From Verrucomicrobiota bacterium (GTDB lineage Bacteria > Verrucomicrobiota > Verrucomicrobiia > Limisphaerales > Fontisphaeraceae), in assembly GCA_037139415.1 (NCBI GenBank), contig JBAXGN010000049.1:1-43130 (forward strand): a stretch of DNA of 43,130 bases. The letters are read 5' to 3'. Every line of letters begins with the position of its first letter. Position 1 is the first letter of the stretch. The translations under genes and the position numbers were made by a program. The notes beneath the pieces are model-generated. The model was not told the origin of the DNA. It searched no databases and worked only from the letters and a program-made list of their open reading frames with translations. Shown one piece after another: positions 1,816 through 42,703 of this stretch.

Positions 1816-1853
1816 AAGCCGAAAACGGGGGGTTGGGCACTTTGTTCCGAGCG

Positions 1854-2104
1854 GCGGAACACGTGTTCCATGGGATGGAACAAAGTTCCGGGGCATGGAA
1901 CATGTGTCTGGCCGCGTGAGACACATGTCTCACCGGTTGGGACATGTGTTCCGCCGGATGAGACAAGCTTCCATGGCGTGGAACACGTGTCTCGGCCCAT
2001 GGAACATGTGTCTCAGCCCATGGAACATGTGTCTCAGCCCATGGAACATGTGTCTCAGCCCATGGAACACGTGTCTCGGCCCATGGAACACGTGTCTCAT
2101 GGGG
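1854..2104. repeat. Array 1: about 12 degenerate 21-bp units, each centred on a 14-bp dyad
   Basis: Each unit carries a dyad built from half-sites GGAACA or GAGACA: GGAACACGTGTTCC (a perfect palindrome at 1856-1869), GAGACACATGTCTC (1918-1931), GGGACATGTGTTCC (1939-1952), GGAACACGTGTCTC (1980-1993). Near-identical units then start at 1999, 2020, 2041, 2062 and 2083. Dyad centres fall at about 1862.5, 1883, 1903.5, 1924.5, 1945.5, 1966, 1986.5, 2007.5, 2028.5, 2049.5, 2070.5 and 2091.5, a pitch of 20.5-21 bp. Half-sites vary while spacing is kept. It can be read as a heptapeptide repeat in several frames, which is a trivial result of 21 being divisible by 3. Confidence 0.85.
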
Positions 2105-2118
2105 TGGAACAAGGCTAT

Positions 2119-2190
2119 TTTTGCCAAAAACGGGGGTTTTGGACCCCGAATCGAGGGTTTTGGGTCAAAAACGGGGTGTTTGGGGGGACG
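2119..2190. repeat. G/T-rich continuation of the 21-bp periodic region
   Basis: After the last clear dyad unit, three further G/T-rich 21-bp segments follow (CAAAAACGGGGG, CCGAATCGAGGG and AAAAACGGGGTG starts). A CCAAAA/TTTTGG dyad at 2124-2142 is centred at 2133, in phase with the array upstream. The stretch ends at the left border of the duplicated small-gene unit. Confidence 0.5.
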
Positions 2191-2846: not shown

Positions 2847-3422
2847 TCACTCCAACGTGTGACCGCTGATGGTGCAGGTGGGTTTGTTGGTCATGTTATT
2901 CAGCATGTAGATTCCGCCCTGGGGGCAATTGAGCGACCATTTCACGTATTTATCGGTGCCGACGAGATCGGTCATGGCGGGCGTATCCTTGCCGGTCTTG
3001 TGATTTTCGAGCGCCCATTGTTCCTTGGACCCGTCAAGCTGGCGCAGGTTATTGATGCATTGGCATTTGTAGTGATCGTGGGATTGAACCGGGAACAGTT
3101 GGGGGTGATACGCGAGGAATACCAGGCATACGGTTAGCAACCCTACCCAGTAGCCAACCCGCGCATGGGCCCGGCCTTCCATTGGTTCGGGGGACCGGCG
3201 AATCCGGTAGGCCGCAACCTCCGCCAGCACGACCGCTGCCAGACCAACCACAAAGGACAGATCCAGCAGCACCCCCAGCCATGACCCGCTCAGGCCAAAG
3301 CTATGTAGCATATATGGGGCACCAAGTAATACGATACTGCCAACCCCCAGTATCAGGCTGGCGCGGGCCAGGCGGGAGACGCGGGAGGCGTTCGCGGGCG
3401 CAGCGGGTTCGGTTTCTTTCAT
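2847..3422 (-). CDS. Small membrane protein with pseudopilin-like C-terminal domain (paralog 2)
   Basis: A 191-residue tandem paralog of the previous entry. The first 20 residues are nearly the same (MKETEPAAPANASRVSRLAR) and the C-terminal motif is retained (NNLRQLDGSKEQWALE, TPAMTDLVG, CPQGGIY, SGHTLE with paired cysteines). The membrane-spanning middle is much less conserved. ATG at 3422 lies at the same point of the duplicated block as ATG 2782 of paralog 1. The almost identical upstream DNA suggests shared control or recent gene conversion at the 5' end. A link to type II secretion or pilus machinery is only a guess from the C-terminal motif. Confidence 0.7.
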   Translation of the reverse strand: MKETEPAAPANASRVSRLARASLILGVGSIVLLGAPYMLHSFGLSGSWLGVLLDLSFVVGLAAVVLAEVAAYRIRRSPEPMEGRAHARVGYWVGLLTVCLVFLAYHPQLFPVQSHDHYKCQCINNLRQLDGSKEQWALENHKTGKDTPAMTDLVGTDKYVKWSLNCPQGGIYMLNNMTNKPTCTISGHTLE

Positions 3423-22700: not shown

Positions 22701-24035
22701 TTACTTCAACTTCTTAATGGAGATATTGCGAAACATGACCGGATCGTTGTGACCCGCAAACCCAAAGAAGCCCTGCGTCCGATCCTTGCCCGGGTGCGGA
22801 TGATTTCCCATGTATTCAGTAACCTTGGAGAGGTCGCAATCGAGAATCACCGTGCCATTCAGTTCCACCTTGATCTTGGAGCCTACCACCGTCACCTCCT
22901 CGTAATTCCATTGACCGTTGGGCCGGTGGTAACCGCGTTGGGCCGCCACCATGCCGTAGGCGGAGCCATGCGCTTGGCGCGGGTCTATCTTGGCATTGCG
23001 GGCCTTTTCATAATTGTCGTCCAGCACTTGGATTTCACACATGCCCACATAAGCAGTATCGCCCTGGCCGGGATAGCGGATGGCCAGGCCGTTGTTGCCG
23101 CCGGGCGGCAGGTTAATTTCAAGGCGGACAATGAAATCCGAATACTCTTCCTTGGTGAAGATGGTGCCGCCCTTCTTCGGCTTGCAGACAATGGCTCCGT
23201 CTTTGACTTCGTAATTGTCAATCGGGCCGTCCCAACCGGTAAAGTCCTTGCCGTTGAAGATCGGCTCAAACCCTTCGGGGTCTTTGCCGCGCAACATGGC
23301 GTTGGCCTCCTCGGCGGATGGTTCATGCACAAACACGTTGCGCCACCGGATTTCTCCACCGTGCGTTTGAAGTTGCAGCGGACCTTCAGGCGGCAGCGGA
23401 ATCACGCGCGCCTTGTCGTAATAATTCTCATGGATGGCGTTCTCCACCACCTGCTTATCATTCAGCCAGACCCAAGTGCGGGTGCCGAGTTGCACCACCT
23501 TGAAATGATTCCATTCGCCAAACGGTTTATCAGCGAGCACCGCCGGATCTTTGCCGGGCGAGCCGGCGCGATTATTCCACAGGCCGCCGGAACCTTTATC
23601 GGCGCCGAGCTTGAATTTCGCCTGCTCGGTATAATCCCAGATTTGCACCTGTGGCGTGCCTTTCAAGTAGATGCCGCTATCCGCCTTGGGGACCGTGCGG
23701 TAATCCAGCAGCAGTTCGAAATCGCGGTAGTTTTTATCGGTGGTGAGGTACAATCCTTTGCCGTCATTGATCAGCTCCTCGTTTTCCACGCGCCAGTGCG
23801 CTTGGATGTCGGGCAGGCTGGCATCGTGCTTCTGTTTGAAGTCTTCCGGCGAGAGCGCCAGGTATTTGCGAGGATCCTCGGTGGTGGCACCCCACCAGCC
23901 ACTCAGGTCCTGGCCGTTAAATATGGCTTGATATCCAGCAGGTGGAACGGCGGTGAAGGCAATGACCTGGCTGATTCCCAGCGAGGCGGCGCATGTGAAC
24001 ATCCACGAACAGCACGATGGTATGGCGTATTTCAT
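22701..24035 (-). CDS. Two-domain DUF1080 (3-keto-disaccharide hydrolase-like) secreted protein
   Basis: A 444-residue exported protein with two DUF1080 lectin/glucanase-like jellyrolls. ATG 24035 begins MKYAIPSCCSWMFTCAASLGIS, a signal-like segment. Domain 1 (about 33-245) runs from YQAIFNGQDLSGWWG to GGEIRWRNVFVHE. Domain 2 (about 263-444) runs from FEPIFNGKDFTGWDG to DPVMFRNISIKKLK. Some DUF1080 proteins hydrolyse 3-keto-glycosides formed by Gfo/Idh/MocA oxidoreductases, which fits the oxidoreductase gene right behind it on the same strand. A long open frame on the opposite strand is a shadow of this high-GC gene. The specific substrate is not visible. Confidence 0.88.
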   Translation of the reverse strand: MKYAIPSCCSWMFTCAASLGISQVIAFTAVPPAGYQAIFNGQDLSGWWGATTEDPRKYLALSPEDFKQKHDASLPDIQAHWRVENEELINDGKGLYLTTDKNYRDFELLLDYRTVPKADSGIYLKGTPQVQIWDYTEQAKFKLGADKGSGGLWNNRAGSPGKDPAVLADKPFGEWNHFKVVQLGTRTWVWLNDKQVVENAIHENYYDKARVIPLPPEGPLQLQTHGGEIRWRNVFVHEPSAEEANAMLRGKDPEGFEPIFNGKDFTGWDGPIDNYEVKDGAIVCKPKKGGTIFTKEEYSDFIVRLEINLPPGGNNGLAIRYPGQGDTAYVGMCEIQVLDDNYEKARNAKIDPRQAHGSAYGMVAAQRGYHRPNGQWNYEEVTVVGSKIKVELNGTVILDCDLSKVTEYMGNHPHPGKDRTQGFFGFAGHNDPVMFRNISIKKLK

Positions 24036-24173
24036 GGACGAGGTTGTATGCGACCAACCCAACGATGGCAATGAAGAAAATAGGGCAACCGCATCGAAAA
24101 CGAGAATGCAACAGCCGCAGTGAACCGGCTGGTGGCAATCGTGAATAATGGAACGAACAATTTTATGGTGAGT

Positions 24174-24371: not shown

Positions 24372-24494
24372 CTATTTTACTTCCTGCTTCAGTTCCTCCT
24401 GGTATGAGCATGGTAAGCTAAAAATGTAAAATGTTTTCGCCCCCTGGAAACGGCTTTGGACGCCCCCATTGGCCCTCAGACGGGCGGATTGGAC

Positions 24495-24963
24495 CCAAAA
24501 AAGTGCTGTAGTGGTTCCTAAAAGTCCCAAAACCATCGCCGAAACGGCCAAAAAGGGCACTCCGGGGTATATTTGGCCTCCCAGCCGTGCACCGACCTCC
24601 AAAACCTGTGCACCGACCTGCAAAACCTGTGCACCGACCTGCAAAACCTGTGCACCGACCTGCAAAACCCGTGCACCGACCTGCAAAACCCGTCCACCAA
24701 CCTGCAAAACCCGTCCACCAACCTGCAAAAACCGTGCACAGACCTGCAAAACCCGTCCACCAACCTGCAAAAACCGTCCACCAACCTGCGAAACCCGTCC
24801 ACCGACCTGCAAAAACCATCCACCGACCTGCAAAACCCGTGGACCAACCTGCAAAAACCGTGCACCGACCTCAAAAAGTGCTGTGGCGACCTCAAAAAGT
24901 GCTGTGGCGACCCATAAAAGTCCCGAAACCATAGCCAAAGAAGCTAAAAGGCGCACTTTGGAA
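24495..24963. repeat. Array 2: about 14 core 21-bp units (TGCA-phased) inside 21-bp flanking repeats
   Basis: Core units at about 24596-24880 have the form ACCTGCAAAACCTGTGCACCG, drifting to CCCGTCCACCA variants. Palindromic TGCA tetramers fall alternately 11 and 10 bp apart in intact units, one per helical turn. Both flanks hold related 21-bp segments: AAAAGTGCTGTAGTGG... at about 24500-24562, and AAAAAGTGCTGTGGCGAC twice plus a decayed copy at about 24884-24962, so the flanks form an imperfect direct repeat around the core. Long heptapeptide-repeat frames exist on both strands. Changes between units are frequently non-synonymous in each, so I do not call a gene. Confidence 0.85.
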
Positions 24964-25009
24964 GGTTTTGTGGCCACCTATCCCGCCGCCGTCCATTGCC
25001 ACAACCCCG

Positions 25010-25190
25010 TTTCAGGGGGCCCCGAAAGGATTTGGGGGCACCCCCGGAGAGTTTCTACGCCCCCTGAAAAGGTTTCGGGGGCCCCCAGAGAGTTTCAGCG
25101 GCCCCTGAAAATGTTCCGGGGCGCCCCGGAAGTATTTCTGCGTCCCCTGAAAACCTTTCGGGGAGCCCCCGGAGAGTTTGGGGGAGCCCC
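25010..25190. repeat. Array 3: nine dyads at 21-bp pitch, alternating TTTC...GAAA and GGGG...CCCC types
   Basis: Dyad centres are at 25018.5, 25039.5, 25060.5, 25081.5, 25101.5, 25122.5, 25143.5, 25164.5 and 25185.5: every step is 21 bp except one of 20. Examples are TTTCAGGGGGCCCCGAAA (25010-25027), GGGGGCACCCCC (25034-25045), TTTCAGCGGCCCCTGAAA (25093-25110) and the perfect palindrome CCGGGGCGCCCCGG (25116-25129). The first eight alternate between a TTTC/GAAA type and a G4-5/C4-5 type, giving a 42-bp super-unit. No coding reading is plausible. Confidence 0.85.
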
Positions 25191-25470
25191 GGAATATCAT
25201 TCCCAGCGCCAAGGAATCATCTTCGGCCCGCGGGAAACGGTTCCTGGCCGCCGGAATTTGGGGCAAGTGAGGCCAAAAACCAGGGGCTCGCCTGTAAATG
25301 AGCGCCCCGCCGCCTCCCGGCGGGTATCGGGACGCACCGGAATCTCCAGCCTCCTTGGGACTGCCCGGCGCGGACGGCGATCCCCCGACGCAATGGGAGG
25401 TGGGGACGAGTTTGAACCCGGTGAACGCAGGCTTGCAAGCGCAGCGACGACCGTAGCGGGTTTAGAAAGT
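25191..25470. other. Gene-free GC-rich stretch
   Basis: 280 bp between array 3 and the terminator of the minus-strand fucosidase/URO-D unit. Short open frames exist on both strands, but their composition follows the GC-rich DNA and shows no motif. A CCGCCTCCCGGCGGG imperfect hairpin at about 25308-25326 is the only structure noticed. Confidence 0.35.
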
Positions 25471-32112: not shown

Positions 32113-32274
32113 ACCAGCAGCCGGTGGTATTTTGTGCCCCGCGCGGCTGTGGTTATATGTTTGTTGATGGCTGAAACAGGCAGGGCCAAACAAATATGAT
32201 ACACGGTCCGGTAATGCCAGTCCCAAAGCTCAGTCTGCACGCACACTGAGCGGCTGGATGATTTTACCCGGACC
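32113..32274 (+). ncRNA. Structured 5' leader: three consecutive imperfect hairpins
   Basis: Hairpin 1 (32113-32153): ACCA-g-CAGCCG pairs with CGGCTG-TGGT, ten pairs with one bulged G. Hairpin 2 (32155-32197): ATAT-gt-TTGTT pairs with AACAA-ATAT, enclosing TGGC/GCCA. Hairpin 3 (32205-32274): GGTCCGGTAA pairs with TTACCCGGACC around one bulged C, enclosing CCAG/CTGG and a perfect 7-bp stem GCTCAGT/ACTGAGC with loop CTGCACGCAC. It ends 31 bases before the ATG of the 10.4-kb gene. I recognise no known riboswitch class. It might act in RNA stability or translation control. The rest of 31980-32305 shows no coding potential. Confidence 0.4.
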
Positions 32275-32305
32275 ATCCGAACAACCTTCCAAAATTAAAA
32301 CGATT

Positions 32306-35300
32306 ATGAATACAAAACACCAAACTATCTCTTTAAAAACCCTGGCTCTTCTTTGCCTGACAGGAATCCTGCTGGCGGGTGCTGCGCTGACGACGTTTGC
32401 CGCCCCCCGGAGTTGGGCGGGCAATGGCAGTACCCCTTCTTGGCTGGATCCCCTTAACTGGAATGAGGGTGCCTTGACCAGCGGTGACTTTCTGAGTTTT
32501 ATCAGCCCAGTGACAAAGCCAGCCAATTCAAATGATGCCCCCGGACGTGTGGTGGGGTCTCTGACGTTTGGGCCGGGAACCAGCGGATATGGCTTGGGTG
32601 GGGCATCGTTATTCATCACCAACGGCATCAGCAATTCCAGTTCCAGTGCTTTGAACACAATTAGCAACTCGATCTCGTTTGCCACTCCGTCGGCGGTCGG
32701 TCTTGTCCAAGCCACCCAGACCGTATTGAACGCCGTTGCCAGCGGCAGCGGCGCGCTGGTGTTCAAAGGGTTTCTGACCAACAGCGCTCCGTCGGGTGCG
32801 GCGGCAGGCACCAACGTGCTGGTGTTTGGCGGCACGGGTGATTTCGGGGTGAGTAATGTTATCTCGGGGGTCGCGGGGTTGATCAAAACCGGCGCGGGCA
32901 ACCTCACGTTGGGGGCGGCCAATACCTATGGCGGCAACACGGTTGCCGGTGCCATGGTGGATACGCTGCTCTTGGGCGGCACCATTCGCGCGGGGGCCAA
33001 TAACGTGATTCCCAACGGCAATGGCAAGGGCAACCTGAATATCACCAATGCCACGTACGACCTGAACGGCACCACCCAGCAGTCGGTGGATGGTTTGAAT
33101 GGCGATAGCACGGCGATCGTGAACAACTCTTCGACAGTGAGCAATTCGACTCTCTCCATTGGCAATGGCGGCAGTAACTCATTCTGGGGTGGTAACATAA
33201 CAGATCCCAATTGGGCTTCGGGAGGCATTATCACCGTCAGCAATAATAACGGAGGCAGCACTTTCTTCACGGCTGCCAATGCCTACCACGGGATGACCCG
33301 GGTGCAAGGCGGCACGTTGATTCTCACCAATAATGGCACGGTGCTGAATAGCACTAATATTTATATCGCCAACGGTAGAACGCTTCGTATTGATAACAAT
33401 AGTGTGGGCGGCAATCTGACTGATCGTATTAGCGATAATGCCCTGGTTATTCTGGATAACGGCGTTTTGGGTTTCTACCATAACGCGGCCGCTGGTGTAA
33501 ATTACAGCGAGACGCTCGGCACCGTCATCTTCACAAATAATCAGAGCCGGATTGACTTGAATCAAGCGGCGGCCGGGCAAACCTGTACGCTGACCATTAA
33601 CAATGTGGTTCGCTATGGTTCAGGATGGGGTTATTTCAGCGGCACTGGATTGGGATTGGACACGCGTTCCCGCATCATCTTCAACAATCCCGGTGCCCTG
33701 ACCAACGTCGCCATGCAGTTGACACCGTCCGGTGTGCCCTTGGGTATCATTCCCTGGGCCTACAATGGCAGTGATGATTTGCAACGTTGGGTCAGCACCA
33801 ACAACCTGAATTCACCAGCCATCCTGGTTGCCAACGACTACGCGCTGAATATTCCCGAAACGCAATGGGACATCACGAATAACGTCCGGCTCGGTTACGG
33901 TCAGACGTTGACCGGCAGCCGCACAGTGAGCAGTCTGAACCTGGGGGCGTCGGCGGTGGCACTGACGCGAGCTGGCGCATTACCTTTGGATTTGGGTGGA
34001 AGCAGTTTGCGCATCGCGTCTGGAGCACTGATGTTTGGTGGTGATTCTACGGGCATTTTCCAGATTACGAATGGCACGTTGACGGCTGGCATTTCGGCAG
34101 GAACACCGGCGGAACTGATGATCTATACCCGCAATACGGGCACGGCGTTGCCACTCAACGTCGGGTATTCGGCCCCCTACATCGGTTCTGAAATCGCGGC
34201 CAGTATCACGGATAATGGCGGTGGGGCGGTTACAGTGACTAAAGCGCTGGGGAACCCGCTCGTATTGAGCGGTAACAATACCTATTCTGGAGGCACAACG
34301 GTTGCGAACGGCGGTGGCACCTTGATTATCGGTAATGGCGGCACCACGGGTTCGGTCGGAACGGGTGATATTACCAACTATAGCGGTGAAATTTATCTGA
34401 ACCGCTCGGATGACCTTCCCTTTACCAATGTGCTGCGCGGCACCGGCGGCAATTTCCGCAAGTTTAATGCCAACAACGTTATCATGACGGCGGACAGCGG
34501 TTCCTATGCAGGTACGGTTTATGCCTATCCCGGCCTCACGCCGGATACTGGCAGCCTGATTCTTGCCGGGGGCGGGCGCCTAACCAACGCCCCAATCACT
34601 GTACGGCGTAGCACGTTTGTCGTTTCCAACTCGGTCTCTGCGAATAACACGGATCGTTTGGGCGATGGCAAAGCTTTTACGCTGGAAGCTGGCACCTTTA
34701 TTTACACCAATGACGGTGGTGGTGCCACCAACTACTCCGAGTCTGTGGGTGGTCTCACAGCCAACTACGGCTTCAATACGGTGGTGGCGGCTCCGCCTCA
34801 GGCAAATTACCGGTCCCGCCTCACCTTCTCTTCCTGGACCCGTAACAATAACTCTACCTTGAATATTGTAGCTCCGGGGCTGGGCACGAATGTTACCACG
34901 GGTAGTGCCACAAACTTGGTGGTGTTCACCACCGCACCGGGCCAGCAGTTCGGCACCTTCAACCCGGCGTCCGTGATTTGCGGTACGGAGTTTGCCAAAT
35001 ACACGACCAATATCAGCTTGGTGGTAACCTCCGTTGCGCCAGTGCTTGATACGGACTTCAATTCCATTGGCGACGCTGCGGGAGAGGCTAATTGGCGGGC
35101 CACCAACAATCTCAAACTGACCAGCAGCGCGGCGACCACTGCCTCTCGAACGGTCAACACCCTCAACCTGACCAATGGGCCCACCCTGACTCAGGCCCCA
35201 AACACCTACCTCACCGTCTCCAACGCGGGTATTCTGGCCAGCGGCGATGCCAATGCCACCATCACCGGTGGCATCCTGAACGGCGGAGTGGCAGAACTCA

Positions 35301-38300
35301 TCTTCCATGTCATGATCTCCACAAATAATGGCAACACGTTGACGGTCAATTCAGTCATCACGAATTCGGCGTATGCCAATCTCGATTTAACTAAGAGCGG
35401 CCCGGGCACACTGGTTCTGGGCGGGGCCAATGTTTACAGCGGCCTGACCCGTATCGGCGGCGGTGTGCTCAGTGTAAGTCAGATTGGCGATGCGGGTTCG
35501 TCCAGTGGCCTTGGAACCAACATTGCCAGCGGCACCTATCTCCGTGGTGGCACGCTCCGATACACCGGTTCCGGTCTCGCGACTACCGCCCGGCCTTTCG
35601 ATGTGCAAGGCAGTGGCGGTACCATTGAAATTAACGATCCGAACGGAAACCTTACCATTAATGCGGCGGTGGCTGGCAATAGCGGTGGAAATTATGCCGA
35701 TTTGACCAAAGCCGGTCCGGGCACGCTCACTTTGGGAGGCACCACGGATAACAACAGTCTTCACGCCATCGTTCAGGCGGGTACGTTGGTGCTCAACAAG
35801 ACTGTGAGCGGGAAGGCTTTAGCTGGCGTTTCCTACGTGGCGCCCGGCGCGACCATCAAGTATGGCAACACCACGTACGGCGACCAGATTCTTGACAGTA
35901 AAAACTGGGGCGTTTTGAATATGAACGGCACCCTTGACCTTGCTGGTGCGAGTGATGCCATTGTATGGATGACGGGCAGCGGTAATATTACGAACAGCGC
36001 CAGCACACCCTCGTTCCTGACCAATGGCGTGGGCGTGGCTTCCGTCAATACGCTCAACATCACGGATGGGGCGAACAGCGGCGGTGGCACGATCACCCTG
36101 GTCAAGAGCGGCGCCAACATTTTGGCGTTGAGCGGCAACAACACCTACAGTGGCAAAACGCTGGTACAAAACGGCACCCTTGCGATTGACGATGACAGTA
36201 GGCTAGGTGCAGTGCCGACAACGTATGTGGCCGATCAGCTAACCTTGGGTTATATCGGAACCTCGGGTGGATTTGGAACACTGCTAGCCGCACGTGGCAA
36301 TTTCAGCATTGCTGCCAATCGCGGCATCACCCTCGCAACCAATGGTACCTTGGAGGCTGCTTATGGTGCCACCATGACCATCAACAGCATCATTACCGGA
36401 ACCAACAATCTGACCAAGACCGGGCCCGGCACTGTTGTTTTGGCCAATTCCGGCAACAACTGGACCAACGGTCTGACCATCAGCGGCGGCACACTCAAAA
36501 TGGGCGCTTCGGGGGTAATTCCTTACGGCTTCGGCATTGCTAACGTGACGGTCAACGGCGGATCCATGGGGATCGGTACCGCGAGCATTCAGAATTTTGG
36601 TACGCTGGATTTGAATGGGTTCGACACCAGTGTCAACGGCTTGACGGTGAACGTGACCACCCCCGGAGTAGGTGGCGTGGTGTTGAATAACGCGGCCAAT
36701 ACGACTAATACGCTATCCGTTGGTTATGCGGACGTGTCCACCACTCTCAACGGTGGTCTCATGGATAATAACAATAGCCTCGGCGGGGTGTTGGCCCTCA
36801 AGAAAGTCGGGACCAATATCACGATTCTGGGTAACTACACCAACACCTATTCTGGCGGTACCATTCTTGCGAGCGGCAACCTCAGCATTAATAATGACGC
36901 CAATCTTGGTGCCGTGCCGGCCACGCCGACCACCAATATCACGTTCATGGGCGGTACCCTAAGAAATGCGGCTAGTACCACATTCCCTGTAGTGCATGCC
37001 AACCGCATCGTCAATCTCACCACAAGCGGTGGGTTCCTGTCCTCTGGCTTTAATACCAGTCCCTTGGTCATCAATGGCAAAATCACGGGACCGGGTTTTC
37101 TCGGGATCGCCTATGAGAGTTCGACGAATGTGATTGCCAATCCGCTCAACGACTATACGGGTAACACCATTGTGGGCACGAACGGGTACACCCATTTTTA
37201 CAATAACGTGGCTCGCTTGCGACTGGGGGCGTCCGAGGTCATTCCCAACGGCCCCGGCAAAGGCAACCTGCTCATTACCAATACCAGTTTTGTGGACCTG
37301 GGTGGGTTTACCGAAACCGTCAATGGGCTCAGCGGCTTTGGGACTGCCGTGGCGGGTAGTGTGGATAACACCTCGGGTAATGGCAACCTCATCGTTGGCG
37401 ATGCGGACACGACCTCGGTGTTCGATGGCGTGCTCAAGAATACCTTTGGCACGCTCAGCCTGACCAAGATTGGCGCAGGCAAGCTGACCCTGACCAGCAC
37501 GAACTCCTATGCTGGCGGTACGACCAATGCAGGTGGTATCCTGAATATTAACGCGGATACTGCGCTTGGGACGGCAGCGCCGCTGGTCTTCTCGGGCAAT
37601 AGCGCGCTCCAGGAAGCAGCCAATCTCACCCTTTCGGGCAGTCGCTCCATCACGATCAACAGCGGCGTGACTGCCACGAATGATGACCAGGGATTCAACG
37701 TCGCCATCAACGGACCCATCAGCGGAGCGGGTAGCCTTACCAAAGTTGGTTCGGGGACACTCAGCCTGTACGGTGCCAACACCTATTCGGGTAGCACTGT
37801 GGTTGCGGATGGCACCTTGCTGATTACGAGTTCGCACCAAGGTGGCGGGGCCGTTGCCGTCAACGACGGTAAAGTTTTAACGATCAGTTTCTCTGGTCCA
37901 GAGCAGACCGTTCCCATGACTTCGCTGACGTTGGGGACCGCAAGCGGTGCGGCGCTGAACTTCACCGGTTGGGCGGCTGATCCAGCCACGGCCTCGGTCT
38001 GGGCGACCAATCTGGTCGTCAACGGTACGGTCACGATTAATCTCAGCGGCCAGTTTGTGGCCGGTGCCGCCATTCCGCTCATCCGGTACACGGGCGCCAT
38101 TGGCGGCAGTGGGTTTGCCGGTCTGCAACTGGGCAATCTACCACGCGGGGTTACAGCCACGTTACAGGATAATCCGGGTGAGGTATCGCTGCTCATCACC
38201 GATGCCTCGGGTATTTCCTGGACGGGTGCGCTCAGTCCGATTTGGGATGTTGCCAACACTGCGAACTGGCTGTTCTCTGGCAGTGGTACCATGTATCAGG

Positions 38301-41300
38301 AGCCTCCGGGCGACGCAGTAACCTTCGGTAATGGGGCGATCGCCTACACGGTGATACTGAGCAATAATGTGGCGCCTTTGCAGATTCAGTTCACCAATAC
38401 CGACTCCCCCTACACTCTCACCGGCACAGGAATGGTGACGGGCGCGGGGTTGATCATTCAAAATTCTCCGTTCACCAATACCCTCAGCACCACCAATACC
38501 TTTACGGGCGGTACGCTGATCAAGGATGGTGTGCTCAAGATGGGTATTTCCAATGCGCTGGGTGCTCCTTCCGGGCCGTATCTGGCCTCCATCAGTTCCG
38601 GTGCCGCATTGGACTTGAACGGTAATTTTATGGAAAGTGTGACGACCAAGGCCGTGTTGATCAATGGCCGCCGGGGCACCGATGGCGCAATTGTAAACAG
38701 TGGTGCCGCGTTGACGTCACATGGCGTGGGGAGTGTCACGCTGGGCAGCGATGCCGCACTGGGATCTGTCAATAATTATGACGTGGTCGGCCGCTTGGAT
38801 GGCGCCGGGCATCACTTGGATAAGATTGGCGGTAACAGGATTGGCATTCGCACCGGGCCGGTGGTTAACCTGAATGGCATCACCGTCAGCAATGGAACTT
38901 TGGAAGTATTCGTTGATTTGGGCGGCGCACCCGTCGAAGTGCAGACCAACGCCTCATTATACTTGAATGGCGTAGTGGGTGGCGTGGTGTCCAATTCCAC
39001 ACTTACGATGCATTCCGGTACCTTCTCGGTCTCTGGAACCGCCAGCGGTTGGTCCGGCCCGGTCATCCTGCAGGATGGCACAAATGCCTTTAATCCCACC
39101 ATTGGCAACTTAAGTCTCTTCGGCCCCATCAGCGGCACTTCACCGTTGACAAAAAATGGCGGGAATAGTCTGTTACTTTACAATGGCGCGAACAGTTGGA
39201 GCGGCCCCACCACCAACAGTTCAGGGGTGCTCTATGCCTACGCTAGTGGCGCATTGCCGGTGGATGTGGTCAACAACGCCATTGTGGCCTTTGTGCCCAG
39301 CAACGGCGCTACCATCGTTTACGGGAAGACGCTGACCGGTTTCGGCAATCTTGCCACGGCCTCCAGCGCCCTGGGTACCACCATCTTTACCGGTACGAAC
39401 CTGTGTAGTGGCGGGTTGCAGGTCAATGGCGGCACCATGATCATCACCAATGGCGGATATACCACCAACGCGCTCATTGTGGGTTACACGAATACGGTCG
39501 GCAGCACACTGATCATCGGGGCAGGCGGCACAGTCAGCGCCACCAACTTGATTGTGGGGTTGGATACCACCAACGTCACCCGCCTCACCGCGTTGGCAGG
39601 CAGTACCTTCACGGTCGGTAAAGGTGCCAACAGCCTGTTCCGCGTGGGCGGACGCACCGGCCCCAATGTGAACAACTGTTCAGCCTTTGTGAACCTTGCC
39701 GCGATGTCCAATTTCACAGCTAATGTCGGGCAGTTCATGGTGGGCACCGATAACAGTTCGGGTGGCACGGGTAATTACGATGGGACGGTATTTCTGGCGA
39801 CCAACAATACCATCACGGCGGCCAACTACGTTTATCTGGGCTTCAGCACCGTGGTTGGTGGCTCTCCGCTTACCAATACGATGGTTTTCGGCAGCGGCAC
39901 CAACCTGCTCATTACCCCGCTGGCGATCGTAGCACATTACAAGACCAGTGGCTATATGTACATGAATAGCGGCGGGAATTTGACGCTCAGCAACACTGTG
40001 GCTCCCTACAAGACAGCGTTGCTCATCGCCACCAATAATGGCACAGGCAATACGACCACTGGTTTGGTAGATATGGCCAGCGGAACAATCAGCGCTCGCC
40101 TGAACAGCTTGGCCATCGGAAAAAAGGTGAACGGCGGCGGAACGGGAAATACGCGTGGCACCTTGAATGTTGGCACCAATGCCGCCAACGATATCCAAGT
40201 GGATAATGTGGAACTCGGTTACTTGGACAATGCCACCAATGCCAACATGCTGGGCATCGGCACCCTGAACTTCGGTGGCGGCGTTATGGCTATCAGTTCC
40301 AATCTCACCATGGCGACACTGATTGCCTACCCGGCAGTGGTCACCAATGGTTATTCCGCTGGTAACCTCAACCTCACAGGGGGAACGGTGACGCTTGGTG
40401 GCGATGTCGTGGTTGGGGTGGGATATAGTTCACTGATTCTTGATGGTGCCACGTTGGATCTGCGTCCGGAAGGGCGTCCGACCAACGGGCTCATTGGAAC
40501 CGCTCTCTCGCCTCTCAGCACGAATCGTTTTCTGAGCGGGACGCTGCGGAATATAGGCGAGCTTAACGGCGGCACTCCGCTGGTGAAGACGGGCACCGGT
40601 ACCTTGATCTTGGATGGCACCAACACTTATACCGGTCTGACCTTGGTCAGCAACGGCACGTTGCTGGTTCACGGCATCATTAACACCAATGCGCTGGTGA
40701 CCTACGCGGGGGCCACCCTTGGCGGTAACGGCGTCATCCACGGTCCGGTGACCATCCAAAATGGCGCCACCCTCAGCCCGGGGGCCTCCATTGGCATCCT
40801 GACGGTCAGCAACTCCCTGACCATTGCCAATGGCGCGGTGACGGTCATGGAAATCAACAAGACCGGCAACGTCCTGACCAATGACCTGGCGCGGGCCGCC
40901 ACCATCACTTATGGCGGCACGTTGAATCTGGCACTCAGCGGTTCGGCCTTGCAATCCGGGGATGCCATCAAACTCTTTGACGCCTCCTCGGCCTATGTGG
41001 GCGCATTCACCAATATCACCCCGGCTACCCCGGGGACCGGCTTGGTGTGGAACACCAACCAGTTGGCGGTCAATGGCACGCTGATGGTGCAAGGCATCCC
41101 GGTCATCACCCAAGACCCGGTCAGCCAGACCAGCGGCACGCATCTGACGGCGATCTTTACTGCCGGGGCACAGGGCTATCCGGCGCCGGATTACCGGTGG
41201 TACTTCGATACCAATACGCAGGTGGCGGGTGCTACCAGCCTGACCCTGACACTCAACAACCTGCAACTGAGCCAGGCAGGGTACTACCAGTTGGTGGCCA

Positions 41301-42703
41301 GCAACCTATATGGTTCCGCCACGAGCGCGCCGGCCCAGTTAGTGATTACCAATACCGTCACGGGGCCCAGCGTTTTAGTGATTACGCCTTCACCCACCAA
41401 CTACGTTGAAGTGGGTTATCCAGTGGGCTTCCTGGCCACTGTGTCGGGGACCACGCCAGACATCCGTTGGTACTTGAATTCAAACTTCAATACCATGGTG
41501 TTCATGGGGGCGGCCTATACCAACCCGGTGGCCCAGTGCGTGAACAACGGGGAGTACTACAGTGTTACCGCCAGCAATGAACTGGGTGTGATCACCAGTG
41601 ACGCCCCGGTTTATGTGGCAGTGACGGACACCAATCGTCCGGCATTTGTGACGGATCTGGTTCAAACCACCAACACCACCGGCGCGGGTTCAAACTTCAC
41701 ACTCTCGGTGACCATGGCGGCGAGCTGTCATGCCCCAGTGTACACGTGGTACTACAATACCAATACCGTGGTGACCAATGGCCTTTTTGACGTGCCGAAT
41801 AATATCAATGCCTCACTGACCTTAACCAACCTGCAAGTGAGCGATTCGGGCAAATACATCGTGACGGTCACGAATAGTAACGGGGCCACCAATAGTATGG
41901 AAGTGACCCTGGTGGTAACCAACCACTCCAGTGTGGCGCTTGGCTTGCTGATCACCCCGTCGCCGACCAACACGGTAGATGCGGGCAACACGGCGGGATT
42001 CACCGCCACAGTGACGGGTGGCACATCGCCGATTGACTTCTACTGGTACAAGCTGCCGAGCCTGACCGTGCCGGTGGGCACCGGCAACAACTTCACCAGC
42101 GCGGTGGTGACGTGCCTAAGCGAAGGGGATGCGTATCAGGTGGTGGCCAGCAATATCGTCGGCCTGGTGACCAGCGCGGTGGCCTATGTGGAAGTGCGGG
42201 ACCTCAACGTCCCGGCGTTCACTCCGGCGATCGTGACCACCAATGTGACGCTGTTGCAAGGGACGAACTTCAGCGTCGCGGTGGGTGTGGCGGCCTCCTG
42301 CAATCTGGCGACCTACCGCTGGTACGTGAATGCGACGAACCTGTTGGCGAGCCAAACCACGCCGACGCTGAGCCTGGCGAGCCTGAAGCTCAATGATGCG
42401 GGTATCTATACGCTGATTGTGTCGAATAACAACGGGTTATCCCAAATTGGGACCGCGGCGGTGGTGACGGTAACATACGTGGTGGAGAACCCGATGGTGT
42501 TGACGCTGGGGACAACGTTCCAAACGACGGTGACGGCGGAGCTGAACCGGGCGTACTGGCTGGAAGCCCGGGACAGCCTGACGGAAGGAACGTGGCACCT
42601 CATCATCGGGGTGACGAACGTGACGGGACCGCAGGTATTGCAAGACGTGCAGGCGACGAATGGCTTTAGATTCTACCGGATCGGCAGCGCGCCTGCGCCA
42701 TAA
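32306..42703 (+). CDS. Giant secreted autotransporter-associated beta-strand repeat (PATR) protein with Ig-like C-terminal domains
   Basis: 3465 residues, Gly/Asn/Thr-rich. ATG 32306 begins a signal peptide (cleavage about TTFA|AP). At least 11 PATR motifs of the form LTKxGxGTLxLxGxNTYSGxTxVxxGTL occur near residues 192, 641, 1027, 1132, 1263, 1368, 1497, 1717, 1809, 2279 and 2759, predicting a long right-handed beta-helix. Residues ~2930-3410 hold several Ig-like domains (YRWYFDTNT, LQLSQAGYYQLVASN, LQVSDSGKYIVTVTNSN, LKLNDAGIYTLIVSNN). The end (YWLEARDSLTEGTWHLI...FRFYRIG) is a beta-sandwich tail common in Verrucomicrobia. There is no C-terminal beta-barrel and no PEP-CTERM anchor, so the export route is not the classical autotransporter one. 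It is likely a surface adhesin or matrix fibre. Confidence 0.93.
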   Translation: MNTKHQTISLKTLALLCLTGILLAGAALTTFAAPRSWAGNGSTPSWLDPLNWNEGALTSGDFLSFISPVTKPANSNDAPGRVVGSLTFGPGTSGYGLGGASLFITNGISNSSSSALNTISNSISFATPSAVGLVQATQTVLNAVASGSGALVFKGFLTNSAPSGAAAGTNVLVFGGTGDFGVSNVISGVAGLIKTGAGNLTLGAANTYGGNTVAGAMVDTLLLGGTIRAGANNVIPNGNGKGNLNITNATYDLNGTTQQSVDGLNGDSTAIVNNSSTVSNSTLSIGNGGSNSFWGGNITDPNWASGGIITVSNNNGGSTFFTAANAYHGMTRVQGGTLILTNNGTVLNSTNIYIANGRTLRIDNNSVGGNLTDRISDNALVILDNGVLGFYHNAAAGVNYSETLGTVIFTNNQSRIDLNQAAAGQTCTLTINNVVRYGSGWGYFSGTGLGLDTRSRIIFNNPGALTNVAMQLTPSGVPLGIIPWAYNGSDDLQRWVSTNNLNSPAILVANDYALNIPETQWDITNNVRLGYGQTLTGSRTVSSLNLGASAVALTRAGALPLDLGGSSLRIASGALMFGGDSTGIFQITNGTLTAGISAGTPAELMIYTRNTGTALPLNVGYSAPYIGSEIAASITDNGGGAVTVTKALGNPLVLSGNNTYSGGTTVANGGGTLIIGNGGTTGSVGTGDITNYSGEIYLNRSDDLPFTNVLRGTGGNFRKFNANNVIMTADSGSYAGTVYAYPGLTPDTGSLILAGGGRLTNAPITVRRSTFVVSNSVSANNTDRLGDGKAFTLEAGTFIYTNDGGGATNYSESVGGLTANYGFNTVVAAPPQANYRSRLTFSSWTRNNNSTLNIVAPGLGTNVTTGSATNLVVFTTAPGQQFGTFNPASVICGTEFAKYTTNISLVVTSVAPVLDTDFNSIGDAAGEANWRATNNLKLTSSAATTASRTVNTLNLTNGPTLTQAPNTYLTVSNAGILASGDANATITGGILNGGVAELIFHVMISTNNGNTLTVNSVITNSAYANLDLTKSGPGTLVLGGANVYSGLTRIGGGVLSVSQIGDAGSSSGLGTNIASGTYLRGGTLRYTGSGLATTARPFDVQGSGGTIEINDPNGNLTINAAVAGNSGGNYADLTKAGPGTLTLGGTTDNNSLHAIVQAGTLVLNKTVSGKALAGVSYVAPGATIKYGNTTYGDQILDSKNWGVLNMNGTLDLAGASDAIVWMTGSGNITNSASTPSFLTNGVGVASVNTLNITDGANSGGGTITLVKSGANILALSGNNTYSGKTLVQNGTLAIDDDSRLGAVPTTYVADQLTLGYIGTSGGFGTLLAARGNFSIAANRGITLATNGTLEAAYGATMTINSIITGTNNLTKTGPGTVVLANSGNNWTNGLTISGGTLKMGASGVIPYGFGIANVTVNGGSMGIGTASIQNFGTLDLNGFDTSVNGLTVNVTTPGVGGVVLNNAANTTNTLSVGYADVSTTLNGGLMDNNNSLGGVLALKKVGTNITILGNYTNTYSGGTILASGNLSINNDANLGAVPATPTTNITFMGGTLRNAASTTFPVVHANRIVNLTTSGGFLSSGFNTSPLVINGKITGPGFLGIAYESSTNVIANPLNDYTGNTIVGTNGYTHFYNNVARLRLGASEVIPNGPGKGNLLITNTSFVDLGGFTETVNGLSGFGTAVAGSVDNTSGNGNLIVGDADTTSVFDGVLKNTFGTLSLTKIGAGKLTLTSTNSYAGGTTNAGGILNINADTALGTAAPLVFSGNSALQEAANLTLSGSRSITINSGVTATNDDQGFNVAINGPISGAGSLTKVGSGTLSLYGANTYSGSTVVADGTLLITSSHQGGGAVAVNDGKVLTISFSGPEQTVPMTSLTLGTASGAALNFTGWAADPATASVWATNLVVNGTVTINLSGQFVAGAAIPLIRYTGAIGGSGFAGLQLGNLPRGVTATLQDNPGEVSLLITDASGISWTGALSPIWDVANTANWLFSGSGTMYQEPPGDAVTFGNGAIAYTVILSNNVAPLQIQFTNTDSPYTLTGTGMVTGAGLIIQNSPFTNTLSTTNTFTGGTLIKDGVLKMGISNALGAPSGPYLASISSGAALDLNGNFMESVTTKAVLINGRRGTDGAIVNSGAALTSHGVGSVTLGSDAALGSVNNYDVVGRLDGAGHHLDKIGGNRIGIRTGPVVNLNGITVSNGTLEVFVDLGGAPVEVQTNASLYLNGVVGGVVSNSTLTMHSGTFSVSGTASGWSGPVILQDGTNAFNPTIGNLSLFGPISGTSPLTKNGGNSLLLYNGANSWSGPTTNSSGVLYAYASGALPVDVVNNAIVAFVPSNGATIVYGKTLTGFGNLATASSALGTTIFTGTNLCSGGLQVNGGTMIITNGGYTTNALIVGYTNTVGSTLIIGAGGTVSATNLIVGLDTTNVTRLTALAGSTFTVGKGANSLFRVGGRTGPNVNNCSAFVNLAAMSNFTANVGQFMVGTDNSSGGTGNYDGTVFLATNNTITAANYVYLGFSTVVGGSPLTNTMVFGSGTNLLITPLAIVAHYKTSGYMYMNSGGNLTLSNTVAPYKTALLIATNNGTGNTTTGLVDMASGTISARLNSLAIGKKVNGGGTGNTRGTLNVGTNAANDIQVDNVELGYLDNATNANMLGIGTLNFGGGVMAISSNLTMATLIAYPAVVTNGYSAGNLNLTGGTVTLGGDVVVGVGYSSLILDGATLDLRPEGRPTNGLIGTALSPLSTNRFLSGTLRNIGELNGGTPLVKTGTGTLILDGTNTYTGLTLVSNGTLLVHGIINTNALVTYAGATLGGNGVIHGPVTIQNGATLSPGASIGILTVSNSLTIANGAVTVMEINKTGNVLTNDLARAATITYGGTLNLALSGSALQSGDAIKLFDASSAYVGAFTNITPATPGTGLVWNTNQLAVNGTLMVQGIPVITQDPVSQTSGTHLTAIFTAGAQGYPAPDYRWYFDTNTQVAGATSLTLTLNNLQLSQAGYYQLVASNLYGSATSAPAQLVITNTVTGPSVLVITPSPTNYVEVGYPVGFLATVSGTTPDIRWYLNSNFNTMVFMGAAYTNPVAQCVNNGEYYSVTASNELGVITSDAPVYVAVTDTNRPAFVTDLVQTTNTTGAGSNFTLSVTMAASCHAPVYTWYYNTNTVVTNGLFDVPNNINASLTLTNLQVSDSGKYIVTVTNSNGATNSMEVTLVVTNHSSVALGLLITPSPTNTVDAGNTAGFTATVTGGTSPIDFYWYKLPSLTVPVGTGNNFTSAVVTCLSEGDAYQVVASNIVGLVTSAVAYVEVRDLNVPAFTPAIVTTNVTLLQGTNFSVAVGVAASCNLATYRWYVNATNLLASQTTPTLSLASLKLNDAGIYTLIVSNNNGLSQIGTAAVVTVTYVVENPMVLTLGTTFQTTVTAELNRAYWLEARDSLTEGTWHLIIGVTNVTGPQVLQDVQATNGFRFYRIGSAPAP

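What the first reader, a model, noticed from the sequence alone, without database searches (positions are those of the whole stretch)
25010..25190. Second phased dyad array with a different sequence but the same 21-bp pitch
Nine dyads have centres 21 bp apart (one step of 20), the first eight alternating between TTTC...GAAA and GGGG...CCCC types, including the perfect palindrome CCGGGGCGCCCCGG. The sequence is unrelated to the array at 1.85 kb, so common descent is not obvious, but the geometry is the same.
Basis: seen in the sequence. Interest (0 to 1): 0.75.

Follow-up and report, generated by a model that had tools for sequence, protein, structure and literature searches.

The report
Genome-wide 21-bp phased palindrome arrays
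A bacterial genome carries many intergenic DNA arrays, unrelated in sequence, whose repeat units nearly all sit two helical turns (21 bp) apart and mostly read as imperfect palindromes, which suggests that something in the cell reads spacing and symmetry rather than the letters.

Summary
Nine dyads sit at 25018.5-25185.5, step 21 with one step of 20, alternating between two types. Their symmetry exceeds that of column-permuted arrays with the same 21-bp periodicity (0.69 vs 0.49 +/- 0.04, p=0.001). The window also holds a third 21-bp array (24585-24920), which has no dyad. These arrays belong to a genome-wide set. In 1.98 Mb of the 7.9-Mb genome I segmented 29 intergenic arrays in 17 sequence families. 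Of 355 steps, 318 are 21 bp; 20 of 29 arrays have significant dyads. A comb scan of 1.855 Mb not chosen by content gives 21 hits at pitch 21 against a mean of 2.4 at 18 other pitches; 1.06 Mb of relatives gives no excess. Arrays of different sequence share boundary sequences. They are non-coding, show no G-U preference, and are predicted to be more curved than tiled random 21-mers. The best reading is a dispersed, satellite-like DNA element whose spacing and symmetry are kept at DNA level, probably as a platform for a helically phased dimeric or architectural DNA-binding protein. That protein is unidentified. The main rival is neutral tandem amplification. I found no precedent in eight searches of open-access text.

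The parts
25006..25193 (.). phased dyad array, nine 21-bp units (one 20-bp step), alternating TTTC..GAAA and GGGG..CCCC dyads; GGGG/CCCC family
   Evidence: segmentation and centres; dyad p=0.001 against column permutation; related arrays on C29, C43, C98, C288
25114..25131 (.). perfect palindrome TTCCGGGGCGCCCCGGAA in unit 6
   Evidence: sequence
24585..24920 (.). second 21-bp array, 16 units, consensus CCGTGCACCGACCTGCAAAAC; no dyad; highest predicted curvature of the 29 arrays
   Evidence: p=0.71; ratio 2.14, percentile 0.99
24529..24582 (+). boundary sequence shared with a differently sequenced 21-bp array on C71
   Evidence: 83% identity to C71:25950-26003; locus read
24888..24957 (+). 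second copy of the left flank of the 24585 array, on its right side (76% to query bases 93-162 of window 24400-24584)
1843..2176 (.). GGAACACGTGTTCC-type 21-bp dyad array, 16 units
   Evidence: copies on C80 (85%) and C122 (73%)
22701..24071 (-). flanking gene, 3-keto-disaccharide hydrolase domain protein
   Evidence: Pfam PF06439
25518..26906 (-). flanking gene, URO-D family protein
   Evidence: Pfam PF01208

Best explanation
The feature is one member of a lineage-specific, dispersed, satellite-like class of intergenic elements. Each element is an array of roughly 6-20 units at a pitch of two B-DNA turns, often bordered by a shared boundary sequence. Unit sequences turn over by tandem duplication and mutation, so families have become unrelated in sequence. 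Pitch, dyad symmetry and, by model, in-phase curvature are kept at DNA level. The most likely working is that a dimeric or architectural DNA-binding protein sits on one face of the helix at every unit and wraps or coats the array cooperatively, reading mainly shape, symmetry and spacing. Shown: geometry, symmetry, family structure, shared boundaries, non-coding nature, absence from sampled relatives. Inferred: that a protein binds, that selection (not the amplification mechanism) keeps the pitch, and any effect on neighbouring genes or on the nucleoid.
For: Steps: 318 of 355 are 21 bp and 33 are 20 bp, although adjacent units differ at 3209 of 7455 positions. Dyads beyond periodicity: 20 of 29 arrays at p<0.05; one array per family, 17 families, Fisher p=5e-10. 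Pitch 21 stands alone in the comb scan: 21 hits against a mean of 2.4 at other pitches. Half-site covariation: Stouffer z 8.8 over 20 arrays, 4.7 with one per family for 11 families. Columns 4 and 7 bp from the centre are the most conserved (z 2.6 and 3.8), those 1 bp from it the least (z -2.6), as expected of a two-fold footprint. Model curvature exceeds tiled random intergenic 21-mers in 14 of 17 families. No wobble preference: G-T 186, A-C 179, dispersion p=0.22. A shared leader precedes differently sequenced arrays.
Against: No binding protein is identified. ParB_N and LacI are not expanded (one match each in this genome), and an archaeal-type histone fold was not found. Nine of 29 arrays, including the one next door at 24585, show no significant dyad. 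Flanking genes share no family or orientation. Tandem duplication inflates covariation. Curvature comes from one wedge model with angles recalled from memory. All of it rests on one draft genome, about a quarter of which was read.
Confidence: 0.45

Rival explanations
1. Neutral or selfish tandem amplification. A dispersed element carries a palindromic seed; slippage or hairpin-templated copying repeatedly adds units of one helical-repeat-related size. Symmetry and pitch are by-products of the generating mechanism and nothing binds.
For: Neighbouring units are often identical; the C80 copy differs from the window by a net loss of one unit; arrays are dispersed with shared boundaries and about 15 leader copies; no common gene context; not seen in relatives.
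Against: Pitch stays 21 at about 50% unit identity with few indels. Seventeen unrelated families share one pitch; a generic slippage process gives no obvious reason for that. Conservation is structured around the dyad.
Confidence: 0.33
2. Transcribed arrays of small RNA hairpins that bind an RNA-binding protein or stabilise transcripts.
For: Array strands fold better than column-permuted arrays, mean z -3.3 and -3.0 over 29 arrays.
Against: Both strands fold about equally well. G-T and A-C pairs are equally frequent and not overdispersed by array. In the even-centred arrays the pair 2 bp from the centre is complementary in 58% of 119 units, leaving a 2-nt loop. A fixed 21 pitch is not needed for RNA hairpins. 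No Rfam family in the window and four further loci. No orientation relative to genes.
Confidence: 0.12
3. REP/BIME-like elements moved by Y1 (RAYT-type) transposases, with the array as their transposase target.
For: Short intergenic palindromes in alternating types; eight Y1_Tnp matches in the genome.
Against: Only 1 of 8 Y1_Tnp loci has such an array within 1.5 kb; units are 21-bp tandem and family sequences are unrelated, unlike one REP family per RAYT (recalled).
Confidence: 0.08
4. Repeated protein-coding sequence (seven-residue repeats).
For: 21 bp is seven codons and long ORFs run through some arrays; the simple gene caller called a gene at 24543-24917.
Against: Mismatches between adjacent units show no codon-phase bias in 28 of 29 arrays, and seven arrays have stops in all six frames.
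Confidence: 0.02

Closest known systems
[quoted passage not shown] PMC6238139, passages read)
   Same: tandem array of dyads at about a whole number of helical turns; ParB binds each dyad
   Different: 21-bp pitch, many chromosomal arrays of unrelated sequence, one ParB_N match in the genome
pSM19035 parS heptad arrays bound by RHH ParB (PMC9499535, passages read)
   Same: short contiguous repeats that need several copies to work
   Different: 7-bp non-palindromic units with one consensus
REP/BIME and GTAG/CGTC palindromic repeats (PMC3733652, passages read; GTAG repeats reported there in PVC bacteria, Opitutus terrae highly enriched)
   Same: dispersed intergenic palindromes, sometimes clustered or in tandem
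   Different: single-sequence families with a terminal tag; no common 21-bp pitch across unrelated families in the passages read
Eukaryotic satellite DNA (recalled)
   Same: library of tandem families with fast sequence turnover and constrained monomer length
   Different: bacterial, 21-bp monomer, short intergenic arrays
Plasmid iterons (recalled; about 17-22 bp)
   Same: array pitch near two helical turns
   Different: origin-linked, one sequence per replicon, usually fewer copies

Membership tests
Plasmid/chromosome centromere (sopC/parS type) | tandem dyads bound by a dedicated ParB | tested here: inconclusive
   tandem dyads present; binding not testable here
Plasmid/chromosome centromere (sopC/parS type) | cognate partition gene family, one per distinct array family | tested here: not met
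   one ParB_N match in the genome for 17 array families; RHH-type partition proteins not searched
REP/BIME | association with Y1/RAYT transposase | tested here: not met
   1 of 8 Y1_Tnp loci has an array within 1.5 kb
REP/BIME | one recurrent palindromic sequence in many copies | tested here: not met
   17 sequence families among 29 arrays
LacI-type operator clusters | a LacI paralogue for each operator family | tested here: not met
   one LacI match in the genome
CRISPR array | identical repeats separated by unique spacers | tested here: not met
   contiguous diverged 21-bp units without spacers
Protein-coding repeat | codon-phase bias and an open frame | tested here: not met
   codon-phase bias in 1 of 29 arrays, no open frame in 7 of 29
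Known structured RNA | match to an Rfam model | tested here: not met
   0 matches at gathering score in window, L075, L088, L149, L108
Archaeal-type histone wrapping | histone-fold gene PF00808 | tested here: not met
   0 of 10 genomes including this one

The most novel reading that the evidence does not exclude
A bacterial satellite-DNA library. Intergenic arrays of unrelated sequence are held to one monomer length (two helical turns), two-fold symmetry and curvature by a sequence-tolerant architectural protein, so that the cell reads geometry rather than letters to organise its chromosome or silence flanking DNA. This would be a bacterial counterpart of the constraint that chromatin puts on satellite monomers.
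Probability: 0.3. Interest if true: 0.88.

Novelty: new variant of a known kind. Interest (0 to 1): 0.62.

Why it matters
If the pitch is under selection, it implies an unknown DNA-binding system in a little-studied bacterial group that recognises spacing and symmetry across unrelated sequences. If it is not, the genome shows a tandem-repeat generator locked to two helical turns. Either is unusual, and both are testable with synthetic arrays whose pitch is changed by one or five bases. It also gives a simple genome-scan statistic (dyad comb against pitch) that can be run on any genome.

Tried and rejected
Coding repeats were rejected by codon-phase mismatch counts and stops. An RNA hairpin array was judged unlikely. 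A dedicated ParB or LacI paralogue per array was not found, nor an archaeal-type histone fold. A common neighbouring gene family was not found: the commonest Pfam family matched 3 of 48 flanking proteins. Y1 transposase linkage was not found. Orthologous arrays in relatives: no 21-bp lag hit in 11 relative loci of the flanking gene (the only hit was lag 30 in L035).

Similar arrays were not found in G002, G010 and G013 (382 kb; one hit, in L122, had best lag 42 at 0.52 with 0.38 at lag 21). In G001, G036 and G041 (322 kb) several hits had best lag 21 or 42. I inspected four stretches: two are 7-bp microsatellites and two look like coding sequence. The others (in L195, L209, L211, L213) I did not inspect singly; the comb scan over all 74 relative loci shows no excess at pitch 21 (4 hits against a mean of 3.1). 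Among 23 named PVC loci, L046 has a strong 21-bp repeat that I judge by eye to be coding, and a weak 21-bp hit in L038 was not followed up.

No match in plasmid records with one array, and none in viral contigs for one pattern. Paralogue comparison for compensatory change was unhelpful. Rfam found nothing. A strand or orientation preference was not seen.

Rows dropped before counts: of the 30 merged array intervals, L015, L082 and L097 were left out by eye, the merged window interval was split in two, and one array (L070, 30-230) was added by hand, giving 29. The conservation and covariation tests used only the 20 arrays with dyad p<0.05.

Literature: eight full-text searches of the open PMC library; listings seen, and passages read in three papers. 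No description of 21-bp phased dyad arrays appeared in those listings. Subscription papers and preprints were not covered.

Full report
What is in the window. The nine dyads are real. The array at 25006-25193 has units with centres at 25018.5, 25039.5, 25060.5, 25081.5, 25101.5, 25122.5, 25143.5, 25164.5 and 25185.5, i.e. steps of 21 with one of 20. Units alternate between TTTC..GAAA and GGGG..CCCC, giving a 42-bp superperiod (autocorrelation 0.59 at 42, 0.54 at 21). TTCCGGGGCGCCCCGGAA is a perfect palindrome at 25114-25131. The array lies in the gap between a 3-keto-disaccharide hydrolase gene and a URO-D gene, both on the minus strand. The same gap holds another 21-bp array, 24585-24920, with 16 units and no dyad, and the window holds a third at 1843-2176 (GGAACACGTGTTCC type).

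Is it more than chance? Permuting the 21 columns of the unit alignment keeps the period, the composition of each column and the unit-to-unit variation. The permuted arrays reach 0.49 +/- 0.04 against 0.69 observed (p=0.001, 1000 permutations).

It is not alone. I read 1.98 Mb of the 7.9-Mb genome (101 stretches, plus the window). A lag scan over 12-63 bp found 64 intergenic hits; 49 of them have best lags 21 (21), 42 (14), 63 (6), 41 (5), 62 (2) or 43 (1), and the next commonest lag is 14 (9 hits). From these and one array added by hand I segmented 29 arrays (rows dropped are listed under Tried and rejected). Of 355 steps, 318 are 21 bp, 33 are 20 bp and 4 are others. BLAST groups the 29 arrays into 17 families. 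Dyad p is below 0.05 in 20 of 29; taking one array per family, Fisher's combined p is 5e-10 over 17 families. Examples of family cores read from the sequence are CAAACCACGGTTTG, AAACCCACATGGGTTT, AATGACATCATT, CTCGTTCCGAACGAC and GGACAAGACCTTGTCC.

Independent scan. A comb that sums dyad scores at six centres, run at pitches 14-32 with no use of tandem similarity, gave 21 hits at pitch 21 in 95 own-genome stretches not chosen by content (1.855 Mb, score 29 or more); the 18 other pitches gave 0-5, mean 2.4. In 74 stretches of relatives (1.056 Mb) pitch 21 gave 4, others 0-9, mean 3.1; about 10.6 excess hits would be expected at the own-genome rate. Direct lag scans of two genomes of the same family and four more of the order show no comparable array among the hits inspected (uninspected hits are listed under Tried and rejected). 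Twenty-one of the 29 arrays come from the 1.855 Mb not chosen by content, so roughly 90 may exist in the genome (an extrapolation).

Architecture. A leader of about 75-90 bp (CTTTAACGCCCGCC.TTAAAG ... TTTTTGACGTTTTTGG ... GCGTAAGTGCC) has about 15 good copies among 19 matches in this genome and none in 11 relatives. Read in 16 of those loci, it is followed or bordered by arrays of at least five different sequences; in five loci (L174, L177, L180, L182, L184) the lag scan found no array. A second boundary sequence, window 24529-24582, borders a differently sequenced array on C71. The 25.0-kb type has related arrays on C29, C43, C98 and C288; the 1.85-kb type on C80 and C122 and in none of 11 relatives. 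Some arrays lie at contig ends in sequence shared between contigs, so the assembly probably loses more.

What level is conserved? The arrays are not coding: adjacent-unit mismatches show codon-phase bias in only 1 of 29, and seven arrays have stops in all six frames. Both strands fold better than permuted arrays, but about equally. G-T and A-C mispairs are equally frequent (186 and 179 of 1856 cells) without array-to-array overdispersion (p=0.22). In the even-centred arrays the pair 2 bp from the centre is complementary in 58% of 119 units, and the central pair in 30%. This points to DNA-level two-fold symmetry. Column conservation peaks 4 and 7 bp from the centre and dips next to the centre. 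A wedge-model calculation, with angles recalled from memory, predicts more curvature than GC-matched random intergenic 21-mers tiled with the same deviations: mean percentile 0.80 over 29 arrays, 14 of 17 families above 0.5. The array without a dyad, 24585-24920, has the highest predicted curvature. Half-site covariation is above shuffling (Stouffer 8.8 over 20 arrays, 4.7 over 11 families), but tandem duplication inflates it.

How it most likely works. A fixed pitch of two turns, two-fold symmetry, a footprint-like conservation profile and in-phase curvature across unrelated sequences fit a dimeric or architectural protein that sits on one helical face at every unit. Each step beyond the sequence facts is inference. 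Two obvious sequence-specific candidates are not expanded: one ParB_N and one LacI match; an archaeal-type histone fold was not found. Flanking genes share nothing. This weakens a one-protein-per-array model and favours either a shape-reading protein or neutral amplification; I hold these at 0.45 and 0.33.

Known systems. The F-plasmid centromere (twelve 43-bp repeats with ten 16-bp inverted repeats; PMC6238139, passages read) is the nearest in layout, but the membership test fails on cognate genes and on sequence unity. REP/BIME elements are the nearest in distribution but fail on transposase linkage and on sequence unity. Eight literature searches listed no such class.

Limits. One draft genome, a quarter read; organism unnamed (named hits to the flanking gene are uncultured Verrucomicrobia, Opitutae, Lentisphaerae, Planctomycetes and a few otherwise labelled bins at 53-66% identity). 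No experiment.

Noticed in passing
window 25377-25420: A roughly 40-bp stretch after the array matches 15 other places in the genome at 80-97%; a separate dispersed repeat; ARAGORN finds no tRNA in the window.
   Followed up: no
L088 13784-14035, L149 13000-13240: A large dispersed intergenic element with CTCTGGCACCC...GGGGTGCCAGAG ends and CCCTTCGGG hairpins, directly before the array leader; 84% identical between two loci.
   Followed up: partly
L092 end and L145 end; L108 start and L168 start: Contigs end in the same 55 bases (or start in nearly the same 52) beside different 21-bp arrays, suggesting multicopy sequence, perhaps mobile elements, next to arrays.
   Followed up: no
L215 2505-2868: A 41-bp-period array (CCAAAAAACCCTTTTTGGG plus a second dyad) lies within 1 kb of a Y1 transposase match.
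   Followed up: partly
window 32258-42703: A single 3481-codon ORF.
   Followed up: no
L213 14884-15250, L210 80-170: In relative G041, runs of a 7-bp repeat (GTTGAGC and its complement) that score at lags 14 and 21.
   Followed up: no
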